Source of the DNA: Euzebyella saccharophila
GTDB lineage: Bacteria; Bacteroidota; Bacteroidia; Flavobacteriales; Flavobacteriaceae
Reading direction: 5' to 3'
DNA length: 64,000 nt
Assembly (NCBI RefSeq): GCF_014855495.1
Contig: NZ_JACYFJ010000002.1
Location: 930,001 to 994,000, forward strand
In this document: piece after piece, positions 8,782-26,149 of the stretch
How the letters are laid out: every line of letters starts with the position of its first letter
How positions within the stretch are numbered: the first letter of the stretch is position 1
Position numbers and translations under genes: made by a program
Notes under the pieces: model-generated
Told to the model about the DNA's origin: nothing
Seen by the model: only the letters and a program-made list of their open reading frames with translations
The model's database searches: none

Positions 8782-11247
8782 ATGCAAGATAAGAACAAGG
8801 GCTATATGGGCATGTACCTATCCGCCTTCCACTTCGCCATTATCCTGTTCCGGGAGCAATATGCCCTGTACATATTCCATTACGGGCATCAGGGATTCTT
8901 GGATAGCATCCATTCCTTTCTGGTACGGTCCGGGCTACCGTCCCAAGGCATGGTCGCCCGTCTGCTCTTGTTGGGACTTCTGATGGGCGGTATCATGATG
9001 TACCGTCCGGTCAAAAAAGAGGAAGTCGGTCGCAGAAAAAGTATTACGGGCTTTCTCGTTTCCTTGGCCTTGCTGTTCGTTTCTTGGTGGTGCCACGGTG
9101 TTTCCGAGCTGGGGATGTGGGCCTCCATGATATTTCTTTCATTGGCCTACTTGGGATTGATGACCTTCGGGATGCGATTGTTCCAGTTTTTGGACTTCAT
9201 GAACTTGGCAATAAATGACCCCTTTAACGATACGAAGGAAACCTTCGAGCAGACGGGGACACGGATAGACACGCCCTATTCCGCCAACATCCCGTACACC
9301 TATTCCCACAATGGGAAACAACTGAAAGGATGGATCAATTTTGTCAATCTTTTCAGGGCATTGTTGGTCATCGGCACTCCGGGGAGCGGCAAATCCTTTT
9401 CCGTTATCGAGGAAATCATGGCCCAGTTCATCGACAAGAAATACGCCATGGTCATCTACGATTTTAAGTTCGATACGCTGACCCGCAAGGCGTACGGTTA
9501 TCTACAAGAGGCCATAAAAAAGCACGGCAACGATTCCGAAATACCCTTCCCTAAGCTCTACCGTATCTGTTTTGATGACCTTCGGATGACCCATCGGAAC
9601 AACCCCATGGATCCCTATGGCCTGGTCAACCAGTCGGATGCCATCGATACGGCCACGACCCTTATGAAAAACCTCAATCCCGAATGGATTAAACGACAGG
9701 ACTATTTTTCACGCAGTGCCATCAGTTATACAGGGGGCTGTATCTGGTACCTCAAGAAAAAATCGGAAGAAACCGGCAAATATCTTTGTACCCCGGGGCA
9801 TTTGGCCATTCTGACCACCGTAAAGATCGATATATTGATGGAAATCATGACCAAGGACGTAGAGGTACGCCAAATACTGGTGCCCTTTCGGGACGCATTG
9901 GAAAAGGAGGCCATGGAACAACTGTCTGGCCAGACCAGTACGGTCCAGATAAGCCTTTCGAGTATTGCGACCAAGGAAATCTTCTATGTGATGTCCGGCA
10001 ATGACTTCAGTCTGGAAGTAAATGACGCCCGATATCCCAAAATCGTATCGCTACAGAACAATCCCGAACGGAAAGAGGTTTATTCCGCACCTTTGGGCCT
10101 GTACATGAACACTATTCTCAAGCGGGTAAACAAACCGGGCAAGCGGCATATGGCGTTACTTATCGACGAGGTACCCACCTTGTTCATCATGTTATTGCGG
10201 ACCATTATCGATACCGGGAGGGAAAACAAGATCGCCACCATTTTGGGGCTTCAGAGCGTCGGACAGCTTATCCTGGATTACGGCCGGGAACTGGCCGATG
10301 TCATCTATGACAACTGTGCGAACCTTATCTGTGGTGCGGCCAAAGGCGAGACGGCCAAACGGTTGAGCGAGCTTTTCGGAAAGATTCATCAAGAAAAGGT
10401 CTCAAAGAACACGAGCAGTTCCGATGTAAGCACCAATCTGAGCACACAGATGATGGAGCTATTGCCCAAGAGCAAGATCGCATCCATGTCTACCGGACAT
10501 TTCGCAGGGTTGGTGGCCGATACTTTCGAGCATCAGATCAAGGAAAAGAAATGTTATGGCCAGTTGCTCCCCGACATCGAAGGCAAGCGAAGGGCCATGA
10601 AACACAAGTTGCCCGTTGTCAAGGATTTCAAACCGGAGAATTTCGGGGAACTGTTCCAAGCGCAGATGAAGCTCATAGAGGAACTGGATTTACAGAAGAA
10701 CGTCTCGGGCTTGTTTACCAAGGAAATCGGGTACATCGAATTTTATGGTACGCGTCTGGAAGAAACGGCCAAAAATGCATTTACCAATGGTACCAAACGC
10801 CGAATTTTTAAGGATGTGGTCAAGGAGCTTCGCCTGTTCGATTTCAGGGAGGATATTCTGGAACTACTGAATACTGGTCCAAGGGGTGCCGATTGGCAAA
10901 GGTTATTGGCCTATATTGTGGAGGAATTTTTGGTACGTACGGAAATGGACCGTGTGGCCCAGGCCGAATTCGACAAGATCATCGGTGAAGTGGACTGCTT
11001 GGTAAAAGAGGAATATAAGGCCGTTACGGGAAAAGAGCTTGAGAGCGCCATATTTGACGAAAAGAAAATAAATGGTGAAATTGCAAAATCAATCGACAAC
11101 TCCGAGGCGGCCGTAGAAAAATTCATGGACGATTTCGGGAAGGAACTCGATGGGTCCCTGTCCCAAAGTTTGGCAGCTTTGCAGGAAGAGACGGAGTATA
11201 ATTTTGAAGAGGAATTTTCCTCGTATCCCATAGAAAATTTTGAATAA
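8782..11247 (+). CDS. Type IV coupling protein (VirD4/TraG-like ATPase)
   Basis: An 821-residue inner-membrane ATPase that should bring the relaxase-DNA complex to the transfer channel. The first 130 residues hold about four hydrophobic segments (for instance at 58-74 and 90-102). The Walker A motif IGTPGSGKS is at about residues 197-205, and the Walker B ALLIDEV at about 457-463. The segment SVGQLILDYG near 490 corresponds to the conserved sensor region of coupling proteins. The C-terminal 200 residues are acidic and helical and may bind substrates. In CTnDOT-like elements the coupling protein is encoded with the mobilisation genes; here it lies inside the transfer operon and its stop codon overlaps the start of the HTH gene by one base. 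Confidence 0.85.
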   Translation: MQDKNKGYMGMYLSAFHFAIILFREQYALYIFHYGHQGFLDSIHSFLVRSGLPSQGMVARLLLLGLLMGGIMMYRPVKKEEVGRRKSITGFLVSLALLFVSWWCHGVSELGMWASMIFLSLAYLGLMTFGMRLFQFLDFMNLAINDPFNDTKETFEQTGTRIDTPYSANIPYTYSHNGKQLKGWINFVNLFRALLVIGTPGSGKSFSVIEEIMAQFIDKKYAMVIYDFKFDTLTRKAYGYLQEAIKKHGNDSEIPFPKLYRICFDDLRMTHRNNPMDPYGLVNQSDAIDTATTLMKNLNPEWIKRQDYFSRSAISYTGGCIWYLKKKSEETGKYLCTPGHLAILTTVKIDILMEIMTKDVEVRQILVPFRDALEKEAMEQLSGQTSTVQISLSSIATKEIFYVMSGNDFSLEVNDARYPKIVSLQNNPERKEVYSAPLGLYMNTILKRVNKPGKRHMALLIDEVPTLFIMLLRTIIDTGRENKIATILGLQSVGQLILDYGRELADVIYDNCANLICGAAKGETAKRLSELFGKIHQEKVSKNTSSSDVSTNLSTQMMELLPKSKIASMSTGHFAGLVADTFEHQIKEKKCYGQLLPDIEGKRRAMKHKLPVVKDFKPENFGELFQAQMKLIEELDLQKNVSGLFTKEIGYIEFYGTRLEETAKNAFTNGTKRRIFKDVVKELRLFDFREDILELLNTGPRGADWQRLLAYIVEEFLVRTEMDRVAQAEFDKIIGEVDCLVKEEYKAVTGKELESAIFDEKKINGEIAKSIDNSEAAVEKFMDDFGKELDGSLSQSLAALQEETEYNFEEEFSSYPIENFE

Positions 11248-13673: not shown

Positions 13674-13997
13674 ATGGAAAACAAGCTGGTCAAAATTCCA
13701 AAGGCCCTGCAAAAGGACGTCTCCTTCTTTGGGCTTCGCGCTAAATATGTGGACCAAGCCTTTAAGGGCTCGTTCCTATCCCTGATGGTAGGGCTGTTCC
13801 TCAGCACGGTCATCCCGACCTTTCTGAGCCTTTTGCTTTCCTTCTGTACCGCGGCCCTCTATATCGTACTCATGCTTTTCTATTCAAAGGCTTATGGGGA
13901 AAATGGCTTTATCAAGTCCCGAGCGAACAGAAAGGGACCGGATACCATTAAGGGCCATGTCAACAAAAAAAATTTGGTGCTATGGAAAAAAGATTGA
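13674..13997 (+). CDS. traF: Conjugation protein TraF (DUF4133, VirB3-like)
   Basis: A 107-residue inner-membrane protein matching the DUF4133 layout: a GLRAKYV motif near residue 20, two hydrophobic segments at about 34-70, then a conserved KAYGENGFIKSRANRK stretch. In type IV secretion VirB3 sits with the VirB4 ATPase at the inner membrane, and the next gene is the VirB4 homologue, whose start overlaps this gene by 16 bases. Confidence 0.8.
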   Translation: MENKLVKIPKALQKDVSFFGLRAKYVDQAFKGSFLSLMVGLFLSTVIPTFLSLLLSFCTAALYIVLMLFYSKAYGENGFIKSRANRKGPDTIKGHVNKKNLVLWKKD

Positions 13998-16585
13998 ATC
14001 TTCTGGATGCCTTTCCCATTTACGGTTATGAGGCACCGATCTTGGTATCCAAGGAACGGGGTTGCCTGAGCATTCCGTTGCAATTGGAACTTCCCGAAAT
14101 CTACACTTTGGACAGCAAGGATTATCTGAACCTGAACCGGATGGTCTCGGGTATCTTGGAAATCCTGGGCGAGAACTGTCTTTTGCACAAACAGGACCTC
14201 TTCTTCGGGGAAACCTATTCCATGGACCGACAACGATTGGAACGGGATTTTTTCGAGACCGAGGACGAACGCTATTTCAAGGACAGGCCCTTTTTGGAGC
14301 ACCGGTGCTATCTAGCCATCCATAAAGTGCCCAAAAACTATATCGGCCGCACGCCTATCGGGGCCAATTCCTTCTTAAAAAAGGAGCGCCGGTTCTATGG
14401 CCAAAGCTATGTTCCCGAAGAATACCTCGATGGGGACACAATGGCGGATTTCGAGGCCAGGGTCGGTGCCGTCAACGATCTTATCAACGATTCGGGCCTG
14501 ATGAGCTCGAAAATCCTTGATTCCGAGGGACTTTTCGGTCGAGCGGGCTATTACGATTGTTATCTGGAAGCGCGCTACGGGGAAGGTACGGGAAGGGATA
14601 TCGACTTTTCCGAACACGGGCTGCGGGTCGGCGACAAACAGGGACAGTACTTTACTTTGGAAAACCTGGACCAGTTCTCCAAGGAGGATATGGCCTTTCA
14701 CGAATATTTTGGAAAATACAGCACCGGTGACAACCTCTTTCCTATAGGAAACCTGTTTTCCTTGGGGTTCAGGATTCCGCAGGAACATATTGTCAACCAA
14801 TATATCTATACCCCCGAAAAGGAGAAGGCCATGGCCAAACTTAGGTCGAAGGCCAAACGTCTGGACAAATATGCCCGCAACCGCAAGGGGGACAAGAACA
14901 GTACCTACCGGGACCAAATCTATGAGTTCCAGCAGCATATCCTGAACGAGCATAAGGAACTGGTCTATTATCACTTGAACGTATTGGGCCTTTCTAGCTC
15001 CAAAAAATCCTTTAGGTCGATGTGCAATTCCATCCGGTCGGCTTTTCGGAAGCTGGGCATCCATGCCAAGGAAAATACCGTGGACCGAAAAAACCTCTTT
15101 TTCGGGGGTATCCTTGGCAACGGCATTGGGTTGAGCATGGAACTCTTCAGCCCCTTTTCCTCGGAGATGGCGGCCAGTCTCTGGTATTTTGAAGGTGGAT
15201 ATCGAAACAGGATGCACGGCCCCCACGGACTGCGCATGGTCGATAGGGCCACGGGAAAACCATTATTGGTAAGTCTCTACCGCGATCCCGAGGCAAAGGA
15301 CTGGATCTTTAACCGGGGCATGCTCATCGCCTCCGGTTCCGGTGGCGGAAAGACCTTTTATGCCAATGCCTATCTGTTCTCCGAATATCGCGAGGGAGCG
15401 GAAATCCTCATTCTTGAGAACGGGAATTCCTATGATAAGTTGTTGGACCATCTGGACGGGGTCGTCATAGAGAACGACGACAAAAATCCCTTTACGTTCA
15501 ACCCCTTTATGCTGGATTCAGGGGATATGGTAGAAAAAGATGGCCAAAAGATGCTTACCGAGCACAAGCTGACCCAGCTTATCGCATTGGTCTATCTTCT
15601 GTTGGGACGAAAGGACAATGCAATGGACGACGGTCATGACAGTGCCGTGATCCAGACCATTATTGAATTGTTGGTACAGGGATATTATCGGGACCAGTTT
15701 ATCAAGGATAGTCCCGATAACTCCTTCAATACTTTTTATGAATATTCGGAAAGGCATTTGGAGCGACTTATGGATTCCAAGGGCATACGAAAGGAAGTCT
15801 TCGACCCCAATCTGTTTTTACTGCTCTTGGGCAAATATGCCCACGATGGCCCCAGGGCATACCTGTTGAACAGTAGGGACAAAAGGATAGCCCAATTGGG
15901 CCGTGAAAGGTTGGTCTACTTCAAACTCGAAAACCTAATCGAAAACGAACAGCTCTTTCCGATCTTGGCGTTCCTGATGATCGATGTGTTCGACAAAAAA
16001 CTGAAGGATCCAAAAAAACTTTCCTTAAACAAAATATTGGTCGTTGACGAGGCGTGGAACCTGTTCGACAATCCGATAATGGCCAATTATTTTGACGCCA
16101 AATCCAGAATGGCCCGGAAATATGGGGGCCAGCCCATTTTTATCTCGCAAAAGGTAAGCGATTTTGTCAAATCCAAATACATAGGCAATACCATCGTAGT
16201 CAACAGCCACATCAAAGTATTGCTTGACCTCGGCGAGTTCGGCAATTCCTTTGGGGAGATCCAACGGTTATTGGGCCTGAACGAGAAACAGAAGCAACTG
16301 ATCCTATCCATCAACAAAGATTTGCCCATGGGCCGAAAGCTAAGGGAAATGGCCATTTGTTGGAAGGACCGCGTCAAGGTGTTCGGATTGGAAACCTCAT
16401 TGCCGACCAAATGCCTGTTCGAGACCAACCCCAACGAAAAAGCAAAGATCAACCGTCTCCACGAAAAACACGGTCGTGTTTGGCAAAGAACGGCCAACGC
16501 CTACAAACAGCTACAAAACGAACTGGTGGAATCCGGTTCTGGGAATTTGAACGGCAGCGACATTAACCCTAAAAATAGAAAATGA
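13982..16585 (+). CDS. traG: Conjugation ATPase TraG (VirB4 family)
   Basis: An 867-residue ATPase that powers assembly of the transfer channel and pilus. The N-terminal half has the usual VirB4 membrane-associated domain; the Walker A motif IASGSGGGKTF is at about residues 448-458 and the Walker B KILVVDEAW near 683-691, followed by QPIFISQKVSDF, the conserved sensor region. The length is normal for Bacteroidetes TraG. The P-loop has Gly-Gly before the Lys where most relatives have Ser-Gly. It overlaps traF at its 5' end and the next gene by four bases (ATGA) at its 3' end. Confidence 0.92.
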   Translation: MEKRLNLLDAFPIYGYEAPILVSKERGCLSIPLQLELPEIYTLDSKDYLNLNRMVSGILEILGENCLLHKQDLFFGETYSMDRQRLERDFFETEDERYFKDRPFLEHRCYLAIHKVPKNYIGRTPIGANSFLKKERRFYGQSYVPEEYLDGDTMADFEARVGAVNDLINDSGLMSSKILDSEGLFGRAGYYDCYLEARYGEGTGRDIDFSEHGLRVGDKQGQYFTLENLDQFSKEDMAFHEYFGKYSTGDNLFPIGNLFSLGFRIPQEHIVNQYIYTPEKEKAMAKLRSKAKRLDKYARNRKGDKNSTYRDQIYEFQQHILNEHKELVYYHLNVLGLSSSKKSFRSMCNSIRSAFRKLGIHAKENTVDRKNLFFGGILGNGIGLSMELFSPFSSEMAASLWYFEGGYRNRMHGPHGLRMVDRATGKPLLVSLYRDPEAKDWIFNRGMLIASGSGGGKTFYANAYLFSEYREGAEILILENGNSYDKLLDHLDGVVIENDDKNPFTFNPFMLDSGDMVEKDGQKMLTEHKLTQLIALVYLLLGRKDNAMDDGHDSAVIQTIIELLVQGYYRDQFIKDSPDNSFNTFYEYSERHLERLMDSKGIRKEVFDPNLFLLLLGKYAHDGPRAYLLNSRDKRIAQLGRERLVYFKLENLIENEQLFPILAFLMIDVFDKKLKDPKKLSLNKILVVDEAWNLFDNPIMANYFDAKSRMARKYGGQPIFISQKVSDFVKSKYIGNTIVVNSHIKVLLDLGEFGNSFGEIQRLLGLNEKQKQLILSINKDLPMGRKLREMAICWKDRVKVFGLETSLPTKCLFETNPNEKAKINRLHEKHGRVWQRTANAYKQLQNELVESGSGNLNGSDINPKNRK

Positions 16586-17214
16586 TGATATACTTGAAAC
16601 CAAGAATTGTTTACCTAAGAATTTTAATCGGGCTACTCCCTTATTTCGGGTCCGCTCAGATTCCCGTGACCGATGTGGCGGCCAATGCCCAACTGGTAAT
16701 CCTCAATCAAAATGTGGCAACATTGAATTCGCAACTGGTCACGTTGAACTCGACCATGGGCAAGCTTTTGGCACAGATGGAACGAAACGTTACCGTCAAT
16801 TCCAGTGCCTCCAAGATCCTGAGCCAGGACCTTACGGCAAAACGGACCCCTGCCAGTTATGTCATGGGAAGTCCCGAAATGACCGAACTCTATAACCTGA
16901 AGGACAAGATCGTGGAAGCCTATAAGGGTACTCAGAAAAATCTGCGCTCTTTCGCCAATCTGGAAAAGGTAGAAAAGGAAAGGGCGACCGAAACCTTGGC
17001 CGATGCCCTGGTACAGGTTACCTCCTTGGTCTCCCAAGGATCGCATATCGCCTCCACGGGCGAAATCATCGAATCGGCCGACCGGCTTTCGGCACTACGG
17101 TCAATCTTGGACAAAATGGACAGCGTGCTGGAAACCATCATAAAGGTCAATACCTCGCTCTTGCAAAAAAACGAACACCGCAAAGCGGTTTATTCCTTGA
17201 TCAAGACCAATTGA
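16582..17214 (+). CDS. Conjugation protein TraI-like (DUF4141, VirB5 position)
   Basis: A 210-residue secreted periplasmic protein: signal segment at residues 8-25 (IVYLRILIGLLPYFGSAQ), then a long helical region with heptad-like NQNVATLNSQLVTLNSTMGK and a second coiled section. This is the layout of the DUF4141/TraI proteins that stand between TraG and TraJ in Bacteroidetes elements and correspond to VirB5, a minor pilus or tip component. Its start overlaps traG (ATGA) and its stop overlaps traJ (TGATG). Confidence 0.72.
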   Translation: MMIYLKPRIVYLRILIGLLPYFGSAQIPVTDVAANAQLVILNQNVATLNSQLVTLNSTMGKLLAQMERNVTVNSSASKILSQDLTAKRTPASYVMGSPEMTELYNLKDKIVEAYKGTQKNLRSFANLEKVEKERATETLADALVQVTSLVSQGSHIASTGEIIESADRLSALRSILDKMDSVLETIIKVNTSLLQKNEHRKAVYSLIKTN

Positions 17215-18128
17215 TGTACGTTATGCAATCGGATACAGGTTTTAGGGTAACGGTCAACACGATATTCGACCAATATATCGATGATGCCTTTGCGAATTTG
17301 GGGCCCACCTTGGGCATTGGTTTTCAAATGGCAAAGATCGGGTTGGGCATTTTCGCCATCATGCATTTTGTGGGCAATGATCGTGCCGATGTGTTCAAGG
17401 CCCTAAAGTGGTTTCCGTTGATGTTCATCCTTTTCAACTATTCGGAGTTTGCACACGCCATCTTTGAATTCTATAGCAACCTCGGCTCCTCGTTTGTCAG
17501 TACCCAAAAGAACTGGGATACCATCGGGCAAAAGGTGGCCCTGGCCCAGATCGATGTGGCCGCCAACAATGTGGTGGAATGGAACATGTTCAGCATGGAT
17601 ATCGATGGACTGCAATCCTTTGCCCTTACCGGTTTGGCCGGTTCCATAACGGCCTTTGCCCACATCATCTCGACGTTGATTTTCGTGGGCATCAAGGCAT
17701 TGGCCACCATCTACCTGTTCATTCTTATCATTTTCGGGCCTATCAATATCGGGCTTTCGTTCATTCCCGCCATTTCGGGCCTTTGGAAAGCATGGTTGCA
17801 AAAGTTCATGAGCCTCTGCCTATGGCTTCCCATGTTGTATGTAGTGGATATGTTCATGGTCAATCTTGTCGATGCGCTCGTGGACCATTTGTTGCGTAAC
17901 AGTGCCTACGACCTCGGATTGATCTTGAGTTCCTCCCTCCTAATCTTGATGACCTCCTTCTTTTATATCAAGGCCCCTACACTAGCCAACTTTGTAGTGC
18001 AGGGACTCAACATTTCGGGCGGTGGCATCGTCTCCAAGCCCAAGCACTATGGCAAAAAAGCGATACAAACGGTCATCGATGCAAAGAGCGGCGGGGCCAC
18101 AAAAGCGGTTAGGACACTTACGCAATAA
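17214..18128 (+). CDS. traJ: Conjugation inner-membrane protein TraJ (VirB6-like)
   Basis: A 304-residue polytopic membrane protein with about six hydrophobic segments, including a long central one (IYLFILIIFGPINIGLSFIP) that carries the GPINIGLSFIPAI signature of Bacteroidetes TraJ, followed by a tryptophan-rich WKAWLQKFMSLCLWLP. It should form part of the inner-membrane channel. The ATG at 17214 overlaps the stop of the preceding gene. Confidence 0.85.
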   Translation: MYVMQSDTGFRVTVNTIFDQYIDDAFANLGPTLGIGFQMAKIGLGIFAIMHFVGNDRADVFKALKWFPLMFILFNYSEFAHAIFEFYSNLGSSFVSTQKNWDTIGQKVALAQIDVAANNVVEWNMFSMDIDGLQSFALTGLAGSITAFAHIISTLIFVGIKALATIYLFILIIFGPINIGLSFIPAISGLWKAWLQKFMSLCLWLPMLYVVDMFMVNLVDALVDHLLRNSAYDLGLILSSSLLILMTSFFYIKAPTLANFVVQGLNISGGGIVSKPKHYGKKAIQTVIDAKSGGATKAVRTLTQ

Positions 18129-18136
18129 TTAGGATT

Positions 18137-18763
18137 ATGAAAGGAAAATACGAGATATTCAATGATATCGCCCAAAGTAGAAGGCACAACAACAGGCTCG
18201 TCTATAGCTGCCTGATCTTGATGATAGCGGTCTTCGCGATTGCCATCTATTTCGTGGTATCGGCCCATGAGCGTGCCAACAATAACGCCTATGTGCTGCA
18301 TGGGGGGCAACGCCTCCCCATGGTACCGATCAGGGATGCCAAGGAAAACCTCGAAATTCTTTGCGAAGGTCACGTCCAAAACTTTCATGAACTGTTTTTC
18401 TCGTTGGAACCCGATTTGAACCTGATCAAAAGAAACATAGAGGAAAAAGCCTTGTTCATGGTCGATTGGTCAGGCAACCGTTTATATGCCCGTTTGGTCG
18501 AAAAAAAATACTTCCATGATGTGGTAATGCGTGACTATCACTACTTTGTGGAACTTGATTCGATTCAAATCGACTATGCAACCTATCCGTTTCCGTTTAC
18601 TTTTTACGGCAAACAGGCCATAGAAAAAGGCAAATCCACAACGTATAGGAACTTGGTCACTAAGGGGCACCTGAAAAAAGCGGGCATTACCCCGAACAAC
18701 CTGAACGGAATCAAGATTATCGACTTTGAGGTCGTGGACAATTCCGATCTCGAGCGTAGGTAA
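18137..18763 (+). CDS. traK: Conjugation protein TraK (VirB8-like)
   Basis: A 208-residue bitopic protein: short cytoplasmic N-terminus, one membrane segment at about residues 25-42, then a periplasmic NTF2-like domain, the form of VirB8/TraK. The motif FHELFFSLEPD at about 84-94 is typical of Bacteroidetes TraK. It follows traJ by eight bases and is followed by traM after one base. A TraL gene, usually found here, is absent. Confidence 0.85.
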   Translation: MKGKYEIFNDIAQSRRHNNRLVYSCLILMIAVFAIAIYFVVSAHERANNNAYVLHGGQRLPMVPIRDAKENLEILCEGHVQNFHELFFSLEPDLNLIKRNIEEKALFMVDWSGNRLYARLVEKKYFHDVVMRDYHYFVELDSIQIDYATYPFPFTFYGKQAIEKGKSTTYRNLVTKGHLKKAGITPNNLNGIKIIDFEVVDNSDLERR

Positions 18764-18764
18764 C

Positions 18765-19796
18765 ATGAAATTCAATGGCAACATAAAGCGTTTGAAGCGA
18801 TGGGTCGTAAGGCACAGAAATTTTGCCATGGCCCTACCTTTTATTCTGGTACTGACCAGTTTTTTTGTCATTGAGAACGTCAAGGATTTCCAAATGGGGC
18901 TCGGCGACACTACCGATCCCACGAATGGCTTCAATCCAGATCTTCCCGGCAAGGTTCCGACCTTGGAATCCGAAGCTATCGCCGAGCCTTGGAAATTAAA
19001 GGACTCAACAGAAAAGAAAAAGGTAGTGAAATCTTCGTCCTTACCGGACATGACCCAGATGAACGATTCGCAAAACGATTCGCTCCAAAAAATCTTGAAG
19101 CGATTGGAAGGACTATCCTTGGATACTAAACTCCAGGAAACGATGGAGACCGACCCACCGGATAGAAAGAAAACCGTGGAGAGGGAAAAGAAGAACAGGA
19201 TGACCGCGGAGGAGCAGAAACAAAAATTCGTGGAGAACCGCTTGGCCTACCGTGAAATGCTGCTGGAGGGAAAAAGGAAAATAGTCGGGGAATCCTTGAC
19301 CGGCAACCGCTGGCCCCAACAGGAACGGATGCCCGTTACCAAAAAGCCGATCTTCTTTAGGGCAACCGTATATGGCGATCAGTTCATCTTGCCCAATGAG
19401 AATGTAAGGCTACTGCTCATGGAAGATATGGTCCTTAGTGATAAACGATTTCCCAAAAATACCTTCATCTACGCTATGGCTTCCATACAGGGAAATAGGG
19501 TGTATTTGGATATAGACAATATCGAGCACCATCCGGTCGATATCTCCGTCAGGGACTTCAACGATGGGAGGGAAGGAATCTACAACAAAAGGGCCGGGGA
19601 ACTCTGGAGGGAGTACAAGGCCGAAATGGGAGGCGATGCACTGCGAGGGGCCACCGACGAAATTACCAGCGGCGCACCGGATGTTTTAAAAGGCATCGCC
19701 CAAGGGTTGGGGACTTTCCTTCGAAAAAAAAGGTTACGGGAAAAAGAAAAAATCCTATTGATGGATGATTATGAACTCTTATTGGCAACACAATGA
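18765..19796 (+). CDS. traM: Conjugation protein TraM (VirB10-like)
   Basis: A 343-residue protein with an N-terminal membrane segment at about residues 21-36, a long charged linker with a predicted coiled-coil section (SLQKILKRLEGLSLDTKLQ), and a C-terminal domain beginning FFRATVYGDQFILPNENVRL, as in the TraM C-domain. It should span the periplasm and link the inner-membrane ATPases to the outer-membrane ring. I start at the ATG at 18765; a longer frame from 18726 lies inside traK. The last four bases overlap traN (ATGA). Confidence 0.85.
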   Translation: MKFNGNIKRLKRWVVRHRNFAMALPFILVLTSFFVIENVKDFQMGLGDTTDPTNGFNPDLPGKVPTLESEAIAEPWKLKDSTEKKKVVKSSSLPDMTQMNDSQNDSLQKILKRLEGLSLDTKLQETMETDPPDRKKTVEREKKNRMTAEEQKQKFVENRLAYREMLLEGKRKIVGESLTGNRWPQQERMPVTKKPIFFRATVYGDQFILPNENVRLLLMEDMVLSDKRFPKNTFIYAMASIQGNRVYLDIDNIEHHPVDISVRDFNDGREGIYNKRAGELWREYKAEMGGDALRGATDEITSGAPDVLKGIAQGLGTFLRKKRLREKEKILLMDDYELLLATQ

Positions 19797-20782
19797 AAAT
19801 AAAAGCTGTACTTACAATAATTGGGCTATTGGGGTCTCTATCGGTTATGGCGAAAATGGACACCATTGCGGTTTCAAGGAACTATAAGACCATTCTGGTA
19901 CTGCCCGCCCCTTATGATTTTTCCATTAATGGGAAGGAGCTGAATTTTTTGGAGTCCTTTCCGACGAAAAGTGCTTCCGCAACCTCAGAGCGTATCGTTT
20001 TGCTTATCTATAACGATGTGGCACCCGACACCTCCGATTTTACGAACTATACCATTTATACCCGTGACGGTCGTGCCTATGATTTTATCCTGCAACTGGT
20101 GGACATCCCCGCCAAGAAGCGATGGACCATAACCACCGACATGGTCGATAACCTCGAAGAGCTATCCCATAAAAAAAGTGCTACTGAATTGGATGAATCC
20201 GACTTTGCTTCATATCCTGTCATAAAGGAAAAGGAAACCATAGCGGCCACTGAAACAGTTACGGAAACATTTAAAGTTATACCCGAAAAGGAGATAGATG
20301 GGGAACCCTTGCCGCTTACCCAGGAATTGTATGTCTTGGATCGAATGGAATATATACGGCGGAGATGTTATTACAACCAGTTCAACAAGGGCAAGATCAT
20401 CCGATATTTTTCCAAATACGATGATGTATTTCTCTGGCTGGAGAACGTGTATTATGAGAATAACGAAATATACCTACAGTTTCGCTTGGAGAACAAGGAA
20501 CATATAGACTATGATGTCAATTTTATAAGGTTCAGCATCGCCACCAACTACAAGAATAGTTCGAGCAATGTCAAGACGGAACACAAGCCCTTGTTCAGGT
20601 ATAAAGTTCCCAAAAAGGTCGAGGGGAATTCCGAGAACTATTTTATGGTGGTCTTCGATAAGTTTACCCTTGACCGGAGAAAGTCCCTCGTAGTGGACCT
20701 AGATGAAGAAAAGGGCAATAGAAACCTATCCTTGGATATAGACCAACTTGTCATCAATAACCCATCAGGATTTAAATTATGA
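19793..20782 (+). CDS. traN: Conjugation protein TraN (DUF4138, VirB9-like)
   Basis: A 329-residue exported protein with a signal peptide (residues 1-20, ending SVMA) and two beta-rich parts joined by a Thr/Glu-rich linker at about 140-165. The start of the mature part (SRNYKTILVLPAPYDFSIN) and the C-terminal part match DUF4138/TraN, the VirB9 analogue that forms the outer-membrane ring with TraM and TraO. Overlaps traM by four bases. Confidence 0.85.
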   Translation: MKIKAVLTIIGLLGSLSVMAKMDTIAVSRNYKTILVLPAPYDFSINGKELNFLESFPTKSASATSERIVLLIYNDVAPDTSDFTNYTIYTRDGRAYDFILQLVDIPAKKRWTITTDMVDNLEELSHKKSATELDESDFASYPVIKEKETIAATETVTETFKVIPEKEIDGEPLPLTQELYVLDRMEYIRRRCYYNQFNKGKIIRYFSKYDDVFLWLENVYYENNEIYLQFRLENKEHIDYDVNFIRFSIATNYKNSSSNVKTEHKPLFRYKVPKKVEGNSENYFMVVFDKFTLDRRKSLVVDLDEEKGNRNLSLDIDQLVINNPSGFKL

Positions 20783-20872: not shown

Positions 20873-21424
20873 ATGAGAACAAAGTTATTTTTCATTACGG
20901 TACTATTTTGTCTTGTGGCTTCATCCGTTTCAGGCCAAATGCGGGGCAACCTTGCTTCTTCGGTCGGCGTGAGCGGTGGCTATGTCGAGGATGGTTATGG
21001 TATTATGGGAACGTTTAATTTTCATCCCAATCGGTTCCAATATTTTCAGATAAGTGTTTTGGCCGCAATTGCCGAGGACAAGGGTGCCCAAAATATTCCC
21101 TATAATATTTTCACTATCCAGCCGGGGCTGTACTATCGTGTATTCATGGCGCCTCGAAGAAAAAATTTTAGTCTCTTCCTTGGTGGCGGTGGGCTGTTCG
21201 GATACGAGGTCATCAACAACGGAAGCAATGAACTGCCCACCGGTGCGCTTATCAATGGCAAAAGCCAATTTATTTACGGCCTATATCTCGGTGCGGAAAT
21301 GGAAATAGGCCTAAGTAACGATTTTTCGCTATTGGTCAAGGCCAACGAATACTACCATGTCAATTCGGACGTGGGAAATTTTTATCCGTATGTCGGCGTC
21401 GGCCTACGGTATTTTTTGTTTTAA
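20873..21424 (+). CDS. traO: Conjugation protein TraO-like (outer-membrane)
   Basis: A 183-residue exported protein: signal peptide ending VSG-Q at residue 21, then a beta-strand-rich body with alternating hydrophobic residues and a C-terminal aromatic residue (GLRYFLF), the pattern of a small outer-membrane beta barrel. Position after traN and length match TraO of Bacteroidetes elements. Confidence 0.75.
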   Translation: MRTKLFFITVLFCLVASSVSGQMRGNLASSVGVSGGYVEDGYGIMGTFNFHPNRFQYFQISVLAAIAEDKGAQNIPYNIFTIQPGLYYRVFMAPRRKNFSLFLGGGGLFGYEVINNGSNELPTGALINGKSQFIYGLYLGAEMEIGLSNDFSLLVKANEYYHVNSDVGNFYPYVGVGLRYFLF

Positions 21425-21435
21425 AAAGCGACGTT

Positions 21436-24400
21436 ATGAAATTCAATACCCCACAACGCATAGCCGCCATAGGTTCGCTATGCATGATATTTATAATTGC
21501 CTGTAGCAAGGACTTTGAAGGAATAGTGCAGGATTCCTTTGATTTTACTTTTCATGGCACGAACGAGGAAAACGGCTTTGTATTTGAAGCTGTAAGAACG
21601 GATTTCAGCTTGGAACCCGAACGGATGGTCTCTACCGTTTCCTATTTCATGAAATATAATATCCTTGACGGAAAAGGCTATTATTTAGGTACGGAAAACG
21701 ATACCATCCGCGAAAACGATACCATCCCCGTCAAGGATTTTGACCTTTCTTACCGCTATATGCCCATCGATACGGGTATGCACAAAGTCAAGGTATTAGC
21801 CTGGGATTCAAACCGATTGCAAAAGGAGTTGGAGTTGGCCTACAATGTCAAGTACGCCAGTTTCAGCTTTCTCTTGGGCAAGGGTACCGGGGATTTCATT
21901 ATCAATAGCCGGAACCCCGTCAATGTAACCTTGTTACGGGACAAGAACACGGTTGCTCCGGATGGGGATTCGACCGAAGAATTTGAGATTACCTACCAAC
22001 TGGAAGATGGTTCGGGCAAACTCCATTTGGACGATGTTACCTACGATGCTGGAACCCCCTTCAAGTTGCCCAAGGGCGTTACCGAATTTGGCTACTTACC
22101 AGAAACCTTGGGCGAGCACAAATTGACCATGATTGCGAAGGCTCCCGATGGGGCATCCCTGATGAACGAGTTGCTGCTGACGGTGGGAAATGTCAATTTC
22201 ACATTTAGGGCAACCGCGGCATCCTCACAGGTGGAGCTGGACACCAACCTGGCAATCAATATCGATTTGCAGACACAGGAAGGGGAAAGCGAAGTTACCT
22301 ATGATATTAGCCATTCCTTTTCTTCCGATAGCCAAGGCGCGGGAACCGTACGGAACCAGAATGGCGGGGTCATGGACCCCGGGACTTTTCGCGGCATTGA
22401 TCCCGGCAATTATAACTATACTTTTGAGGACGATGAATTGGGGCAGCGCAAAATCTATTTTGATATACGAGACAGCAATGGCCAGAGGAAAAGGGACAGT
22501 GTCGAGATCGAGATTGCCAACATTCCCTTCACTTTTAGCGGAAATTCGGAAAGCAACCAGGTATTCGTAAACCAACGGACACAGCTTAATTTCAACATTA
22601 AATCGAACGGTAACACATCCAATATCGATTATTTCCTGACCTATGACCTAGAAGAAGGAAACGGAAGGGTTACTGGGGTCAATGGAAATACGATCCGGAA
22701 CAATACCGACTATCCGGTCGACTTGGGTAATTTCCCATTGTTTTATACGCCGGAAACCTTGGGCCCGCATCGCATCAATTTTCTCGTTACGGACAATTAC
22801 GGGCAAGCGGTCGGACCTGTGGAGATCGATCTGGATGCCAATCCCCTTGAACTGGAATTCAATGCCTCGGCCAATAGCAACGAGGTATTGGTAGGCCAGC
22901 GTGGTACGATTTCATTGAGCCTTATCGAACAAGGGGATTACGATGGAGTTTCCTATGAACTGAATTACTTTATTTCAGGTGGTGACGCACAATTGTACAA
23001 TGGGAATTCGCCCATAATCCCTAGCCAATATTTTTCGGTAAGTCCGGGAAGCTTTGCGTATGATTTCGTTGGGCACCAGGCAGGAACCTACGAAATAACT
23101 TTTTTGCTTCGTGACAGCAACGGTCAGATTCTTGAAGATAAGGTTACCGTTGTCGTTGGCAACAACGACTTTACGGTCAATATGACCCCGTCCAAGGCTA
23201 CTGAGTTTTCCAACATTCCGGTGGGTATGATCGTGGATATCGACGAAGTTCCCGACGGAGCGAACGACAGTTACACGGCTTTCTTTTCTTCTAGTCAAAA
23301 CGGGTCGATGTCCATTAATGGTATAACCTATGGTCCGGGGGAACAATTTCCTTTGGGTGCCGGGGTCAACAATATTTCCTATACCGGATCGGAACCCGGA
23401 CAGCATAATATCGTTCTCAGTGTCGAATCGGGATCGGACGTTACCCGAACGGCCAACACTACCATCACTTTTGACCAGGTCGATTTTACCTTTACCGGGG
23501 GCACCCAAAAATCGGACATAACCGTAGGGGAAACCACTGGCCTCAATTTTAATATTTCGGAAAGTGTCGGGTCTTCGGATTACACGATGCGTTTCAGTAT
23601 GAACGGCAATGCGCTCATCAGGGACAACAATGGTATAGAGGTAAGCCCTGGGAACAGTTATGATGTTAATACGGGCAACTTTAACTGGACGCTCGAAGGT
23701 ACCAATGAAAGTACCGTTCGAATGGCTTTCACGGTCCGAAACGATACCGGATTGGAGAAAACCGTGGATATAACGGTAAACGTTGCGGCCAAGGATTACA
23801 CCTTTACCGCATCGGGCACATTGCAGCAGGCCTATATCGGGGAACAGGTGGATGTTAACTTCAATATTTCCGAAATCGGAATCGGTGGGGACACCTACGT
23901 GATGTATTTTTCGGCAAATGGTAACAACGGTTCTTTTGAATATGCGGGCACAAGCTATTCCGCTGGGGAAAGTTTTGATGTACCCGTTGGGGCATTTTCG
24001 GGAAAGTATGTCGGAATGACCGAAGGCAACCATAACATCACTTTTACGGTGCGCTCCTCATCAGATGTGGAAAAAACGGCCAATGTCAATATCAACTATG
24101 AAAGGTACGAGGAACCTTTCGAGTTAACCGTTAGTCAGGCTCCCGGAGAACGTTTGGAAGAAGAACCCTTTAACATCACGGTCATTACCAATGCCATTGG
24201 CACCCATGATCCGGCGGTGACCTATCAAATGACATTTTCTTTCAATGGAAACCGTGTCGGTTATTTCTTTTATGGCGGAAATAGATATGATGAGGGGGAA
24301 ACAATTCCATTGAATTATGGTAGTACCAACCTTACTTTCTATCCAGAGACCCCAAATACGTTTACCATTGATTTTGAGGTGGAGAACTCAACAGGACACT

Positions 24401-24792
24401 CCAAAAGCGGAAGCACATTTGTTGACACTTTAGGAAGGCCCGTGGCATTGGTCAAAGGGGAAAAGCACAATGTCAGTTGCGGAGGATTGAACGGTTGTGA
24501 TTATCAAGTCAGGATCTATACCTGTTTTGATATCGGGTGCTCGGAGGCCTATGGCGGTGCTACGCTGGACCAGGTGGAAATCAGGATATTCAACCGGAGT
24601 ACCAACCGATGGGATACCCGATTGTTCAATTACAACGAAGCCACGGGCAGTGGAGTGTATCGATATTTCATGTTGGAAGAGGAACCCCGAGAAAGCCGTT
24701 TGAAATATCTTGATCAGGACTTTGAGGTCAGGGTCAGGGATACCAATGGCCAATGGAGTGATAAAGTGACGGGGAGAGTGGTCAGAGTTTGA
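21436..24792 (+). CDS. Giant TraQ-like surface lipoprotein with about nine Ig-like repeats
   Basis: An 1118-residue lipoprotein. The signal ends in FIIAC (Cys23) and is followed by SKDFE, resembling the charged Bacteroidetes surface-export signal. From about residue 35 to 1010 I count nine repeats of about 105 residues. Each opens with a strand such as DFTFTGG or NFTFRAT, has a block like VGQ...INFNI, a central YxMxFS...NGxGxxxxNG, a proline-glycine turn and a closing strand ending in T-V-x-V. This matches the single TraQ/DUF3872 domain that ends transfer operons in Bacteroides. A C-terminal domain of about 100 residues has three Cys within CGGLNGC and a further pair, possibly disulfide-linked. 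The repeats probably form a long rod on the cell surface acting in mating-pair contact, which is inference. The gene lies 11 bases after traO and ends the operon. Confidence 0.7.
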   Translation: MKFNTPQRIAAIGSLCMIFIIACSKDFEGIVQDSFDFTFHGTNEENGFVFEAVRTDFSLEPERMVSTVSYFMKYNILDGKGYYLGTENDTIRENDTIPVKDFDLSYRYMPIDTGMHKVKVLAWDSNRLQKELELAYNVKYASFSFLLGKGTGDFIINSRNPVNVTLLRDKNTVAPDGDSTEEFEITYQLEDGSGKLHLDDVTYDAGTPFKLPKGVTEFGYLPETLGEHKLTMIAKAPDGASLMNELLLTVGNVNFTFRATAASSQVELDTNLAINIDLQTQEGESEVTYDISHSFSSDSQGAGTVRNQNGGVMDPGTFRGIDPGNYNYTFEDDELGQRKIYFDIRDSNGQRKRDSVEIEIANIPFTFSGNSESNQVFVNQRTQLNFNIKSNGNTSNIDYFLTYDLEEGNGRVTGVNGNTIRNNTDYPVDLGNFPLFYTPETLGPHRINFLVTDNYGQAVGPVEIDLDANPLELEFNASANSNEVLVGQRGTISLSLIEQGDYDGVSYELNYFISGGDAQLYNGNSPIIPSQYFSVSPGSFAYDFVGHQAGTYEITFLLRDSNGQILEDKVTVVVGNNDFTVNMTPSKATEFSNIPVGMIVDIDEVPDGANDSYTAFFSSSQNGSMSINGITYGPGEQFPLGAGVNNISYTGSEPGQHNIVLSVESGSDVTRTANTTITFDQVDFTFTGGTQKSDITVGETTGLNFNISESVGSSDYTMRFSMNGNALIRDNNGIEVSPGNSYDVNTGNFNWTLEGTNESTVRMAFTVRNDTGLEKTVDITVNVAAKDYTFTASGTLQQAYIGEQVDVNFNISEIGIGGDTYVMYFSANGNNGSFEYAGTSYSAGESFDVPVGAFSGKYVGMTEGNHNITFTVRSSSDVEKTANVNINYERYEEPFELTVSQAPGERLEEEPFNITVITNAIGTHDPAVTYQMTFSFNGNRVGYFFYGGNRYDEGETIPLNYGSTNLTFYPETPNTFTIDFEVENSTGHSKSGSTFVDTLGRPVALVKGEKHNVSCGGLNGCDYQVRIYTCFDIGCSEAYGGATLDQVEIRIFNRSTNRWDTRLFNYNEATGSGVYRYFMLEEEPRESRLKYLDQDFEVRVRDTNGQWSDKVTGRVVRV

Positions 24793-24836: not shown

Positions 24837-25322
24837 CTAGCTTCTCTTGAAAGTATAGGTAATCACTACGTCCTGATCATCCAGAAAATCCTCTTGGTCG
24901 ACTACCAATCGGTTTTGGCTAAACTCCACGATAATCCAATCGTTACGATTATCAAATCGTATAATCCGGTTGTCAATTAGTTCGTAACTATCGTCCTCGA
25001 CATTTTGAAATGCGGGTACTTCCCCACAGGACAGTCCGTTCTCATTAATAGAAAAAGCACCTTTTTCTTCAGCTCCCCGAGAGCTGAAGAAAGTGAGATT
25101 ATCCTTTAAGCATTGGCGTATTTCGTTGGTGTTGAACAGGTCTACATTGACCGTACCGTCACCGTTGATGTCCACGGCCGTATTGGAATCAATCGCCTCA
25201 TATTCCCATTGACCCAACAAGGCTTGGTCTCTATCCGATTCCGCGACACTGTCATCATCGCTATTGCACGAAAAAAATAGTAGCATCGGGAATGCAAGAA
25301 AGATGAAAATATTTGGTTTCAT
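24837..25322 (-). CDS. Asp-rich lipoprotein, 161 aa
   Basis: A lipoprotein with signal LLFFSC and CNSDDD directly after, the typical Bacteroidetes surface-export tag. The body is about 135 residues and includes DINGDGTVN (around residue 52), an EF-hand-type calcium loop, and two Cys pairs. The length and the LLGQWEYEAID opening recall lipocalin-like lipoproteins, though I cannot confirm that fold. It is convergent with the transfer operon and shares a 15-base promoter element with the gene at 5122, so it probably belongs to the same element. Function unknown. Confidence 0.7.
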   Translation of the reverse strand: MKPNIFIFLAFPMLLFFSCNSDDDSVAESDRDQALLGQWEYEAIDSNTAVDINGDGTVNVDLFNTNEIRQCLKDNLTFFSSRGAEEKGAFSINENGLSCGEVPAFQNVEDDSYELIDNRIIRFDNRNDWIIVEFSQNRLVVDQEDFLDDQDVVITYTFKRS

Positions 25323-25337
25323 TGGAATTGGCCTAGG

Positions 25338-25352
25338 ATTACTACAAATATA
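25338..25352 (-). promoter_or_regulatory. Promoter element shared with the transfer operon
   Basis: The minus strand reads TATATTTGTAGTAAT here, 15 bases before the lipoprotein start. The same 15 bases stand at 5078-5092 before the first transfer gene. It includes a TAnnTTTG -7 element; a TTG lies further upstream than usual (about 24 bases). Confidence 0.5.
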
Positions 25353-25412
25353 TCAATAAGGATTACACATTTTAAACAAGAATTTCCAAAATTAATTGTG
25401 CGTAGGCAAGAT

Positions 25413-25600
25413 AAATGCATGGAGCGCTTTTTTGCGCCTCCATGCTTTTATGCGCGGTGCTGAGGATGTTTAAAAGCCGAAGCCGGAAAGACGACCGAGT
25501 GCGAGCCAGCGCAGCTTGCTCGCTCGGTCAGGCTTGGAGGCGAAGGGTTTTTAACTTCCGCAGGCACAGGGGCAGGCATTCTGAAAATGGCCTGTCGCAT
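25413..25600. repeat. Hairpin-rich intergenic junction
   Basis: This 300-base stretch between 25323 and 25644 holds no gene. It has three strong hairpins: GCATGGAGCGC (25417-25427) with its complement at 25434-25445 and a T6 loop; a GC-rich arm at 25493-25506 pairing with 25518-25529, with one bulge; and GCAGGCATT (25572-25580) with 25586-25596. Outer flanks of the second hairpin are also partly complementary (about 100 bases). The first hairpin could end transcription from either side. The composition differs from the AT-rich neighbours. Confidence 0.55.
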
Positions 25601-25644
25601 TAAAAAAAATAATTTTATAGTTATTTAGATGCTTTTTGAGGGAT

Positions 25645-26088
25645 TTACTGTACCGTATCAATCACACTTCCGCAAGTAAGCATAGCATCCCCGTAATAAG
25701 GATTTCGTATTTCGGTATCTGCACTTATCCAAAATGCACCCTTGTTATTATTTGCCATTGGACATTTTTGGATAAAGACTTTTGGGTCTATATTATCAAT
25801 ATTCATTACAATGGGAACCATATTCTGATTCAATAACACAAAGTGGCTACGTTGGTTCTCAATGTCATCGTTCTCGGAAATGGCCCCCAACATCTTTTTG
25901 ATTTTAGCAACGTGCGATTTTTCCATAGTCCCCAATTCCGATTCCCGAATAAGTTGGATTTCTTCCAGTGTTTCTTTTGCGAAAGCGGAAGTGTTTATTG
26001 CGTCGCTGTCAACAAAAGCGTCCTTCATTTTCAAATACGGTTTTAAGCTTTTTTGAAAAATACTTTGAGTGTTTTTGGAAAGTTCCAT
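25645..26088 (-). CDS. DUF3347 protein lacking a signal peptide
   Basis: A 147-residue protein whose C-terminal 50 residues carry the DUF3347 signature: QKCPMANNNKGAFW, then IRNPYYGDAMLTCG. DUF3347 proteins are normally exported and sit next to copper or silver efflux adaptors, binding metal through the Cys, Met and His residues. Here the frame begins MELSKNTQSI with no signal segment, and an in-frame stop lies five codons upstream, so it is either cytoplasmic or, more likely, cut at the N-terminus. It is divergent from the iron-type operon at 26228. It could be a remnant of a metal cluster that lost its first part. Confidence 0.6.
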   Translation of the reverse strand: MELSKNTQSIFQKSLKPYLKMKDAFVDSDAINTSAFAKETLEEIQLIRESELGTMEKSHVAKIKKMLGAISENDDIENQRSHFVLLNQNMVPIVMNIDNIDPKVFIQKCPMANNNKGAFWISADTEIRNPYYGDAMLTCGSVIDTVQ

Positions 26089-26131
26089 TTTACACTGCTG
26101 CCGTCACGTGTTAAAAATGATTTGTTATTTA

Positions 26132-26146
26132 TATTTAATCTAAATA
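26132..26146. promoter_or_regulatory. AT-rich dyad (Fur-type operator candidate), upstream site
   Basis: TATTTAATCTAAATA: TATTTA and TAAATA are inverted around three bases, overlapping the region just upstream of the -33 element of the DUF4856 operon. A related copy lies at 26202-26220. Confidence 0.45.
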
Positions 26147-26149
26147 AAG

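What the first reader, a model, noticed from the sequence alone, without database searches (positions are those of the whole stretch)
21436..24792. TraQ expanded into a nine-repeat surface rod
The last gene of the transfer operon in Bacteroides elements normally encodes one TraQ/DUF3872 domain of about 140 residues. Here the same position holds a 1118-residue lipoprotein in which I can align nine consecutive units of about 105 residues, each with the same strand order and YxMxFS-type core, plus a Cys-bearing tip domain. A long rod with a distinct end could set contact distance or specificity in mating. I do not know of a description of such an expansion.
Basis: partly seen in the sequence, partly recalled or inferred. 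Interest (0 to 1): 0.85.

Follow-up and report, generated by a model that had tools for sequence, protein, structure and literature searches.

The report
Multi-unit TraQ rod for bacterial mating
A mobile DNA element of marine bacteria seems to have turned a small lipoprotein of its mating machinery into a long surface rod with fixed ends and a variable number of middle units, inherited together with a small neighbouring lipoprotein that may keep out second copies of the element.

Summary
ORF 21436-24792 (1118 aa) is a lipoprotein of nine TraQ-like units (104-112 residues) plus a four-Cys tip, directly after TraO in a Bacteroidota transfer operon. The whole protein scores 114 bits to Pfam TraQ; predicted units 4, 7 and 8 superpose on solved TraQ structures (Z 13.7-14.9). 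It is no freak. All 46 elements found through TraG carry such a rod: 15 with nine units, 23 eight, 2 seven, 1 four, 2 eleven, 3 broken; more distant elements have 18 and 27. Base (units 1-2), last unit and tip are kept while middle units come and go (not resolvable in seven-unit rods). TraO, rod and a convergent lipoprotein gene (24837-25322) have a history partly separate from the T4SS core. The lipoprotein accompanies every tip-bearing rod seen (52 of 52), none of 13 single-unit TraQ genes; one stand-alone copy exists. Best reading: a surface mating stalk with an exclusion lipoprotein, working like PrgB stalks and the TraN/Sfx pair of IncC plasmids, with no shown kinship. Architecture rests on computation; function is inferred. 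I found no published description in an open-access library. New variant of a known kind.

The parts
21436..24792 (+). TraQ rod, 1118-aa lipoprotein: nine TraQ-like units plus tip
21436..21519 (+). signal peptide, lipobox Cys (residue 23) and export-like motif CSKDFE
   Evidence: pattern only; F. johnsoniae surface signal SDDFE in PMC5080379 (passages)
21532..21858 (+). unit 1 (constant base)
21859..22194 (+). unit 2 (constant base)
22195..22524 (+). unit 3 (middle, absent from the four-unit rod)
22525..22848 (+). unit 4 (middle); best Pfam TraQ match, predicted fold 4lba Z 14.9
22849..23166 (+). unit 5 (middle); no ortholog in eight-unit rods
23167..23481 (+). unit 6 (middle)
23482..23793 (+). 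unit 7 (middle); predicted fold 2l3b Z 13.7
23794..24114 (+). unit 8; predicted fold 4lba Z 14.3; quadruplicated in eleven-unit rods
24115..24441 (+). unit 9, the sub-tip unit, faster-changing, inherited with the tip
24442..24789 (+). four-Cys tip domain (CGGLNGCDY ... TCF ... CSEA), no Pfam match
20873..21424 (+). TraO, module partner
   Evidence: PF10626 E 5.8e-21
19793..20782 (+). TraN / DUF4138
   Evidence: PF13595 74.9 bits; TIGR03780 below its cut-off
13982..19796 (+). core T4SS genes TraG ATPase, TraI-position, TraJ (TrbL), TraK, TraM
   Evidence: the TraI-position gene has only a sub-cut-off T4SS match
8782..11247 (+). coupling protein (T4SS-DNA_transf)
24837..25322 (-). lip161: convergent 161-aa lipoprotein, proposed surface-exclusion factor

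Best explanation
The gene makes a lipid-anchored stalk on the donor cell surface. Unit 1 (and 2), the ancestral TraQ position, docks on the outer-membrane part of the transfer machine (TraO, perhaps TraN). The tandem TraQ-fold units form a rod whose length is set by the number of middle units. The last unit and the Cys-rich tip meet a partner on the recipient and hold the mating pair. The convergent lipoprotein lip161 is the matching exclusion factor: on cells that already carry the element it blocks or diverts the tip, preventing useless mating. Shown by computation: nine TraQ-like units, kept ends, variable middle, module exchange, tip-lip161 association. Inferred: surface exposure, docking on TraO, binding of the recipient, exclusion.
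For: Fold and family. Surface signal: CSKDFE in the rod against the F. johnsoniae LES SDDFE and C. canimorsus optimum C-X-K-(D/E)2-X in PMC5080379 (passages); lip161 has CNSDDD. Constant ends, variable middle: eight-unit rods lack unit 5, the four-unit rod keeps 1, 2, 8, 9 and tip, eleven-unit rods have four copies of unit 8. The 27-unit rod has a three-unit tandem array (up to 97% identity), while its units 1-8 and last three match 18-unit relatives in order. Module exchange: plasmid L092 has TraI 24, TraK 22, TraM 31, TraN 48% but TraO 80, rod units 1-8 66-86, tip 72, lip161 67% identity to the window. TraG rejects the nine-unit rods as one clade (p-AU 1.6e-31); the rod tree has them as one clade, support 100. 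Co-inheritance: tip-lip161 distance correlation 0.73, partial 0.54 given backbone and rod; u8-u9 only 0.53. lip161 lies in 52 of 52 tip-bearing loci, 3 of 27 others (all 18-27-unit rods), 0 of 13 classical TraQ loci. One orphan lip161 with 145 bp of its upstream DNA and no other tra gene matched around it. Non-conjugative relatives use the same base under Ig/PKD/cadherin arrays. The element moves: near-identical (99.99-100%) over window 1 to about 35,000 with Maribacter sp. 4G9, whose rpoB region is 81.9% identical.
Against: No experiment. The tip is conserved, and under purifying selection in the one pair where its rate could be computed (L032, dN/dS 0.04; undefined for L050 and L051), unlike a fast-evolving receptor binder. 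Tip-lip161 co-inheritance may follow from being neighbours; unit 3-lip161 also keeps a partial correlation of 0.40 and unit 8-lip161 0.27, and u9-lip161 falls to -0.03 once the tip is controlled. Tip clusters 4 and 5 each pair with two lip161 clusters. The lip161 tree does not itself recover the type-1 tip group; it merely does not reject it. Classical single-unit elements mate without a rod (recalled). A promoter motif for lip161 was found in 19 of 50 loci only.
Confidence: 0.58

Rival explanations
1. The rod is a structural extension of the outer-membrane core complex (an enlarged VirB7-like lipoprotein), forming or bracing a channel or cap through capsule and surface layers rather than binding the recipient. 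Length would match the donor's own envelope.
For: Fixed base next to TraO/TraN; conserved tip; length largely follows rod lineage. A VirB7-type lipoprotein with an added domain is reported in Xanthomonadaceae (PMC3093366, title and start of abstract in listing).
Against: The TraO-rod-lip161 block sits on cores as different as 22-48% identity (plasmid L092); the lip161 association and the non-conjugative adhesin-like relatives fit a surface partner better.
Confidence: 0.2
2. lip161 is not an exclusion factor but a chaperone, pilotin or docking partner needed to assemble the tip.
For: 52 of 52 co-occurrence with the tip and co-inheritance.
Against: Convergent gene outside the operon in the 46 named loci; one intact stand-alone copy without any rod or other tra gene matched nearby, beside an Abi_alpha gene. 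That is a single case and could be a remnant.
Confidence: 0.3
3. The rod is a general adhesin for biofilm or surface attachment carried as cargo by the element, with no specific role in mating.
For: TraQ-base proteins with Ig/PKD/cadherin arrays exist in chromosomal loci.
Against: The rod sits at the TraQ position in 46 of 46 named elements (found through TraG of rod-bearing elements) and replaces, rather than adds to, the single-domain TraQ; the window's genome has no other TraQ match.
Confidence: 0.12
4. Repeat number drifts neutrally by recombination among tandem units and has no function beyond that of one TraQ.
For: Lengths from 4 to 27 units occur; the 27-unit rod shows tandem gain.
Against: Units at the same position are often 60-90% alike across elements while units within the window's rod are 9-36% alike, so positions are kept apart by selection or old age; rod lengths cluster (38 of 46 at exactly eight or nine units).
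Confidence: 0.08

Closest known systems
TraQ / PF12988 (DUF3872) single-domain lipoprotein of CTnDOT-type elements; solved structures 4LBA, 2L3B, 2L7Q
   Same: Same fold, same operon position after TraO, lipobox with acidic export-like signal
   Different: One domain of about 140 residues, no tip, no lip161 (13 of 13 loci)
PrgB of pCF10 (Ig-like stalk presenting an adhesin domain in Enterococcus conjugation; PMC10588982, passages)
   Same: Tandem Ig-like domains as a stalk with a distinct end domain, in a mating system; the authors hypothesise that the stalk sets the adhesin's distance
   Different: Gram-positive protein with isopeptide-bonded domains and a polymer adhesin domain; no common ancestry shown
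TraN adhesin and Sfx lipoprotein of IncC plasmids (PMC11493245, passages)
   Same: A surface mating protein with an adjacent lipoprotein gene; orphan copies of the lipoprotein occur on elements without the adhesin
   Different: No sequence comparison made; exclusion proven there, not here
TraT surface exclusion of F-like plasmids (PMC11733297, PMC12658005; starts of abstracts in listing)
   Same: Outer-membrane protein that makes a carrier cell refractory
   Different: No sequence comparison was made; a rod partner is not mentioned in what I saw

Membership tests
TraQ (PF12988) | Whole-protein score over Pfam cut-off | tested here: met
   114.2 bits against 27
TraQ (PF12988) | TraQ fold | tested here: met
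   Predicted unit 4 to 4lba Z 14.9 rmsd 2.7 over 106, unit 7 to 2l3b Z 13.7 rmsd 2.1 over 103, unit 8 to 4lba Z 14.3 rmsd 2.1 over 102; next rows Z about 11. The lists show one best range per entry, so the other units were not compared one by one
TraQ (PF12988) | Directly after TraO at the end of the transfer operon | tested here: met
TraQ (PF12988) | Lipoprotein signal | tested here: met
   Lipobox Cys 23 by pattern; no dedicated predictor was run
TraQ (PF12988) | One domain of about 140 residues (usual size, not part of the Pfam definition) | tested here: not met
   Nine units and a tip; so it is filed as a multi-unit TraQ derivative, not a typical TraQ
PrgB-type stalk adhesins | Tandem Ig-like stalk | tested here: met
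   Repeating all-strand units predicted, mean pLDDT 79.4 for the full protein, three units matching the TraQ fold
PrgB-type stalk adhesins | Polymer adhesin domain | tested here: not met
   No such Pfam match listed for the whole protein or tip; so it may work like PrgB but is not filed as a member
Surface-exclusion lipoproteins (Sfx, TraT type) | Lipoprotein encoded beside the mating surface protein | tested here: met
   Next to the rod in all 46 named elements; lipobox pattern in most. That the rod is the mating surface protein is inferred
Surface-exclusion lipoproteins (Sfx, TraT type) | Allelic matching with the surface protein | tested here: inconclusive
   Tip clusters 1-3 pair with lip161 cluster 2 and the other tips with other lip161 clusters in 38 of 38 loci, partial r 0.54, but adjacency alone could do this
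Surface-exclusion lipoproteins (Sfx, TraT type) | Lowers entry of the cognate element | not testable with these tools
   Needs a mating assay
Surface-exclusion lipoproteins (Sfx, TraT type) | Sequence relationship to Sfx or TraT | not tested
   Only general library scans were run: sub-cut-off matches to DUF5004 and DMP12

The most novel reading that the evidence does not exclude
Bacteroidota conjugative elements possess their own, undescribed mating-contact system: a length-adjustable rod grown from the TraQ domain, with fixed base and tip and a cognate surface-exclusion lipoprotein, exchanged as a cassette between otherwise divergent transfer machines. The same TraN-TraO-TraQ base has been taken over by chromosomal adhesin-like proteins and by T6SS clusters.
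Probability: 0.42. Interest if true: 0.8.

Novelty: new variant of a known kind. Interest (0 to 1): 0.62.

Why it matters
How Bacteroidota elements recognise and hold recipients, and whether they exclude themselves, is not described in what I found. A rod whose natural variants run from 4 to 27 units with kept ends is a ready-made series for testing whether reach limits mating, and the paired lipoprotein gives a direct, simple test of exclusion in this phylum.

Tried and rejected
Unrelated Ig family: rejected, because TraQ is by far the best whole-protein match and TraQ structures top the fold lists; unit 3 alone does favour Big_9. Freak single gene: rejected. Phase or diversity-generating variation of the tip: no sign, tip conserved; no search for such systems was made. 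dN/dS: several values saturated or undefined, used for one tip pair only. Promoter of lip161: TAnnTTTG upstream in 19 of 50 loci, about 4 expected from mononucleotide shuffles, hits largely in relatives of the window; inconclusive, and the motif is recalled. Terminator scan between the convergent genes: none found, 1.2 expected. tRNA in the window as an att site: none. Foldseek on the model of units 8-9 plus tip gave long generic Ig lists, of no use for the tip; in the VIA-align lists no chain stood out for the tip itself, which proves nothing. NCBIfam gave no TraQ match for the rod. PADLOC gave nothing for the rod or lip161 of the window. Literature searches; no text on a multi-unit TraQ seen in the listings; PMC12857230 (T4SS nomenclature review) holds none of TraQ, Bacteroid-, MPFB, MPF B, CTnDOT.

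Corrected on re-check: I first took the identity with Maribacter sp. 4G9 to hold to 40.7 kb. Piece by piece it is 100% from 25,001 to 35,000, 91-95% from 35,001 to 40,000 and 75% from there to 40,702; a probe at 55,000-58,000 matches another contig at 98% over 2,369 of 3,001 bases, so more DNA than this element is shared. The rpoB region (81.9% over 6.8 kb) is the control that shows the genomes differ.

Limits: the 46 named elements were found through TraG of four rod-bearing elements, so frequencies describe that clade. Trees were quick, LG+G4, on 38 of the 40 mapped loci; 27-unit, seven-unit and broken rods and near-duplicates were left out before. Tip groups were chosen after clustering with cut-offs of my own, so their p-values are post hoc. 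Part of the printed output was cut (most of the tip tree); its test lines were seen.
Full report
WHAT IS THERE. ORF 21436-24792 encodes 1118 residues. A signal peptide and lipobox (Cys 23) are followed by nine units starting at residues 33, 142, 254, 364, 472, 578, 683, 787 and 894 and by a 116-residue tip from 1003. Leave-one-out profiles score each unit 32-78 bits; the best shuffle reaches 6-14 bits. Pfam gives TraQ_transposon at 114.2 bits for the whole protein. Singly, TraQ is listed for units 1, 3, 4, 5, 6, 7, over the cut-off only for unit 4; Big_9 is ahead of it for unit 3; units 2, 8, 9 and the tip do not list it. AlphaFold of units 8-9 plus tip has mean pLDDT 91.8. In that model unit 8 superposes on the Bacteroides eggerthii conjugative-transposon lipoprotein 4lba (Z 14.3, rmsd 2.1, 102 residues aligned), next row Z 10.8. 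The full model (pLDDT 79.4, pTM 0.34, as one expects of a jointed rod) gives 4lba on unit 4 (Z 14.9) and 2l3b on unit 7 (Z 13.7), next row Z 11.1.

SURROUNDINGS. Upstream on the same strand are a coupling protein, a TrbC-like gene (below cut-off) and a DUF4133 gene, then TraG ATPase, a TraI-position gene, TraJ/TrbL, TraK, TraM, TraN and TraO. Downstream and convergent, 44 bp after the rod's stop, is a 161-residue lipoprotein gene, here called lip161. Its Pfam matches are under the cut-offs (DMP12, DUF5004, DUF4999; Lipocalin_4 for the orphan copy). Its most conserved stretch reads AVDiNGDgtvNiDL in an alignment of 40.

HOW COMMON. With PF12988, 13 of 199 genomes of the same family match, 28 of 296 of the order and 14 of 395 of the phylum; the three samples overlap. 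Apart from a few fragments, matches fall into short frames of about 150 aa with 130-210 bits and long frames with weak scores per unit (52 bits or less). A scan of genome contigs with a TraG alignment gave 46 named loci, nearly all titled as Flavobacteriaceae genera, all with TraG-I-J-K-M-N-O-rod-lip161 (TraG is split in L080 and L087): 15 rods of nine units, 23 of eight, 2 of seven, 1 of four, 2 of eleven, 3 broken into two or three frames (L047, L065, L087) (recounted). Two plasmids match the whole rod at 73% identity, and a Flavobacterium plasmid carries 27 units in 3016 aa; a fourth (Aquimarina) matches 70% of the query at 22%. The annotation calls all four TraQ conjugal transfer family protein. 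Another family genome has two 18-unit rods; two more order genomes have rods of 2 and 4 units without tip or lip161.

CONSTANT ENDS, VARIABLE MIDDLE. Units at the same place in different elements are far more alike (often 60-90%) than units within a rod. Eight-unit rods lack an ortholog of unit 5. The four-unit rod of Flaviramulus basaltis (L061) is units 1, 2, 8, 9 and tip. Eleven-unit rods lack 5 and have four copies of unit 8 (in L073 49-58% to window unit 8, 57-70% among themselves). In the 27-unit rod, units three apart average 56% identity (up to 97%) against 26% one or two apart; units 1-8 of the 18-unit rods pair in order with its units 1-8 and their last three with its last three. Exception: the seven-unit rods (L057, L058) share the tip (57-59%) but show no clear unit order.

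A MODULE WITH ITS OWN HISTORY. Plasmid L092 has core proteins at 22-48% to the window (TraI, K, M, N) but TraO 80%, units 1-8 66-86%, unit 9 48%, tip 72%, lip161 67%; window TraG and TraJ found no match there at the threshold used. L063-type elements have TraG 53% but units 3-6 79-83%. The TraG tree rejects the nine-unit rods as one clade (p-AU 1.6e-31), whereas the tree of units 1-4 and 6-8 has them as one clade with support 100. Between unit 8 and unit 9 the distance correlation drops (0.53, against 0.79 for 7-8 and 0.80 for 9-tip). Unit 9 plus tip groups nine elements (support 100) that the rod tree refuses as a clade (p-AU 3e-98); the lip161 tree does not show that group but does not reject it (p 0.48), and it rejects the nine-unit clade (4e-5), as does the tip tree (1e-4). 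Tip-lip161 partial correlation given backbone and rod is 0.54; tip clusters 1-3 go with lip161 cluster 2, and other tips with other lip161 clusters, in 38 of 38 loci. Against over-reading: the two genes are neighbours, unit 3-lip161 also keeps 0.40, u9-lip161 vanishes when the tip is controlled, and tip clusters 4 and 5 each pair with two lip161 clusters.

LIP161 GOES WITH THE TIP. Of 27 without a tip match, 3 have a distant lip161, all 18- or 27-unit rods; the tails of two of these (L093, L107) carry a similar CGGGACDRDYDY stretch by eye. None of 13 classical single-unit loci has it. In 199 family genomes, clear lip161 matches (70 bits or more) occur only in the 5 with conjugative tip-bearing rods; 27 others give weak matches (under 34 bits), so it belongs to a wide lipoprotein background. 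In plasmids, lip161 itself was found only on the two that carry the closest rods. In 397 genomes, 16 places in 13 genomes pass E 1e-9; 15 lie beside a tip-bearing rod (one of these rods is broken). No other window tra protein matched in the 37 kb around it, and no rod or tip in L118. This echoes orphan Sfx genes of putative mobilizable elements in the IncC study (PMC11493245, passages read). It is a single case.

SURFACE SIGNAL. The rods read CSKDFE or close variants after the lipobox; classical TraQ reads CSKDDE, CDKDE or similar; lip161 mostly Cys, a polar residue or two, then acidic residues, such as CNSDDD. Lauber and colleagues derive SDDFE for F. johnsoniae and C-X-K-(D/E)2-X for C. canimorsus (PMC5080379, passages). 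This supports, but does not prove, surface exposure.

A LIVE ELEMENT. The window is 100% identical to Maribacter sp. 4G9 over 1-6758, 99.991% over 3982-26,582 and 100% in 1-kb pieces from 25,001 to 35,000; identity then falls to 91-95% up to 40,000 and 75% to 40,702. A probe at 41,000-44,000 finds 69-70%; one at 55,000-58,000 finds 98% over 2,369 bases on another contig. The rpoB regions of the two genomes are 81.9% identical over 6.8 kb. So two clearly different genomes share about 35 kb, rod included, almost without a change: recent transfer.

BASE REUSED ELSEWHERE. Several family genomes have a lipoprotein with two or three TraQ units followed by Big_2, Big_9, PKD, cadherin-like, DUF5018 or surface Ig domains (L033, L036, L038, L039, L040, L042, L043). 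TraO lies directly before it in L033, L036, L040 and L042, with TraN in the first three; no TraO was matched next to it in L038, L039 and L043. In L033 the set follows T6SS gene TssC; in L036 it lies downstream, same strand, of TssC and TssD with two unassigned ORFs between. This suggests that the TraQ base is a surface-anchoring platform.

MECHANISM. Shown: architecture, length variation, exchange, co-occurrence. Inferred: that the rod stands outside the donor, that the base docks on TraO, that tip and last unit contact the recipient, that lip161 excludes. At roughly 4 nm per Ig-like unit (recalled, not measured) nine units would reach about 35-40 nm. PrgB is the best analog for a stalk that presents an adhesin at a distance (PMC10588982, passages), TraN/Sfx for the surface-protein/lipoprotein pair. 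Neither is shown to be related.

NOVELTY. Pfam and RefSeq already place such proteins in the TraQ family, so the family is known; the multi-unit rod, its kept ends, the tip and the lipoprotein partner were not found described in the searches listed. The paper library is open-access only and I saw listings and passages, so absence is not proof.

Noticed in passing
L036 (TssD 15754-16143, TssC 16173-17531, TraN 12765-13793, TraO 12229-12768, TraQ-base proteins 2875-8364 and 8639-12223), L110; L033 (TssC 6679-8043, TraN 8301-9362, TraO 9359-9898, TraQ base 10113-12977): TraN-TraO-TraQ-base genes lie downstream of T6SS sheath (and in L036 Hcp) genes; L110 shows further large ORFs that look like a T6SS cluster by eye. 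A conjugation outer-membrane module may serve a T6SS.
   Followed up: partly
L034 11546-18808: 2420-aa protein of about 21 TraQ-like units after a second TraO, with an ExbB-type gene nearby; no other window tra protein matched in the 20 kb.
   Followed up: no
L118 5232-5717: Stand-alone intact lip161 next to an Abi_alpha gene, away from any matched tra gene: candidate orphan exclusion gene.
   Followed up: partly
L093 11962-21012: 27-unit rod, 3016 aa, with a three-unit tandem array (954-bp period, 3.0 copies, 84% match) on a Flavobacterium plasmid.
   Followed up: yes
window 24837-25322: lip161 holds a conserved D-x-N-G-D-G-x-x-N stretch like a calcium-binding loop (the resemblance is recalled).
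   Followed up: no
L047, L065, L087, L114: Rod genes broken into two or three frames; in L087 TraG and TraI are also split.
   Followed up: no
window 33201-40239: Genes that look by eye like metal resistance (reductase-like, mercury-transport-like, 1027-aa RND pump, adaptor) at the right side of the shared element (no profile search made).
   Followed up: no
window 35,000-40,702 and 55,000-58,000: Identity to Maribacter sp. 4G9 steps down from 100% at about 35,000 and ends near 40,702; a separate stretch at 55-57 kb matches another of its contigs at 98%: element edge and perhaps a second shared mobile stretch.
   Followed up: partly
window 4229-5023: M23 peptidase gene near the transfer genes; an M23 peptidase is also annotated on plasmids L092 and L093 near the rod.
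   Followed up: no
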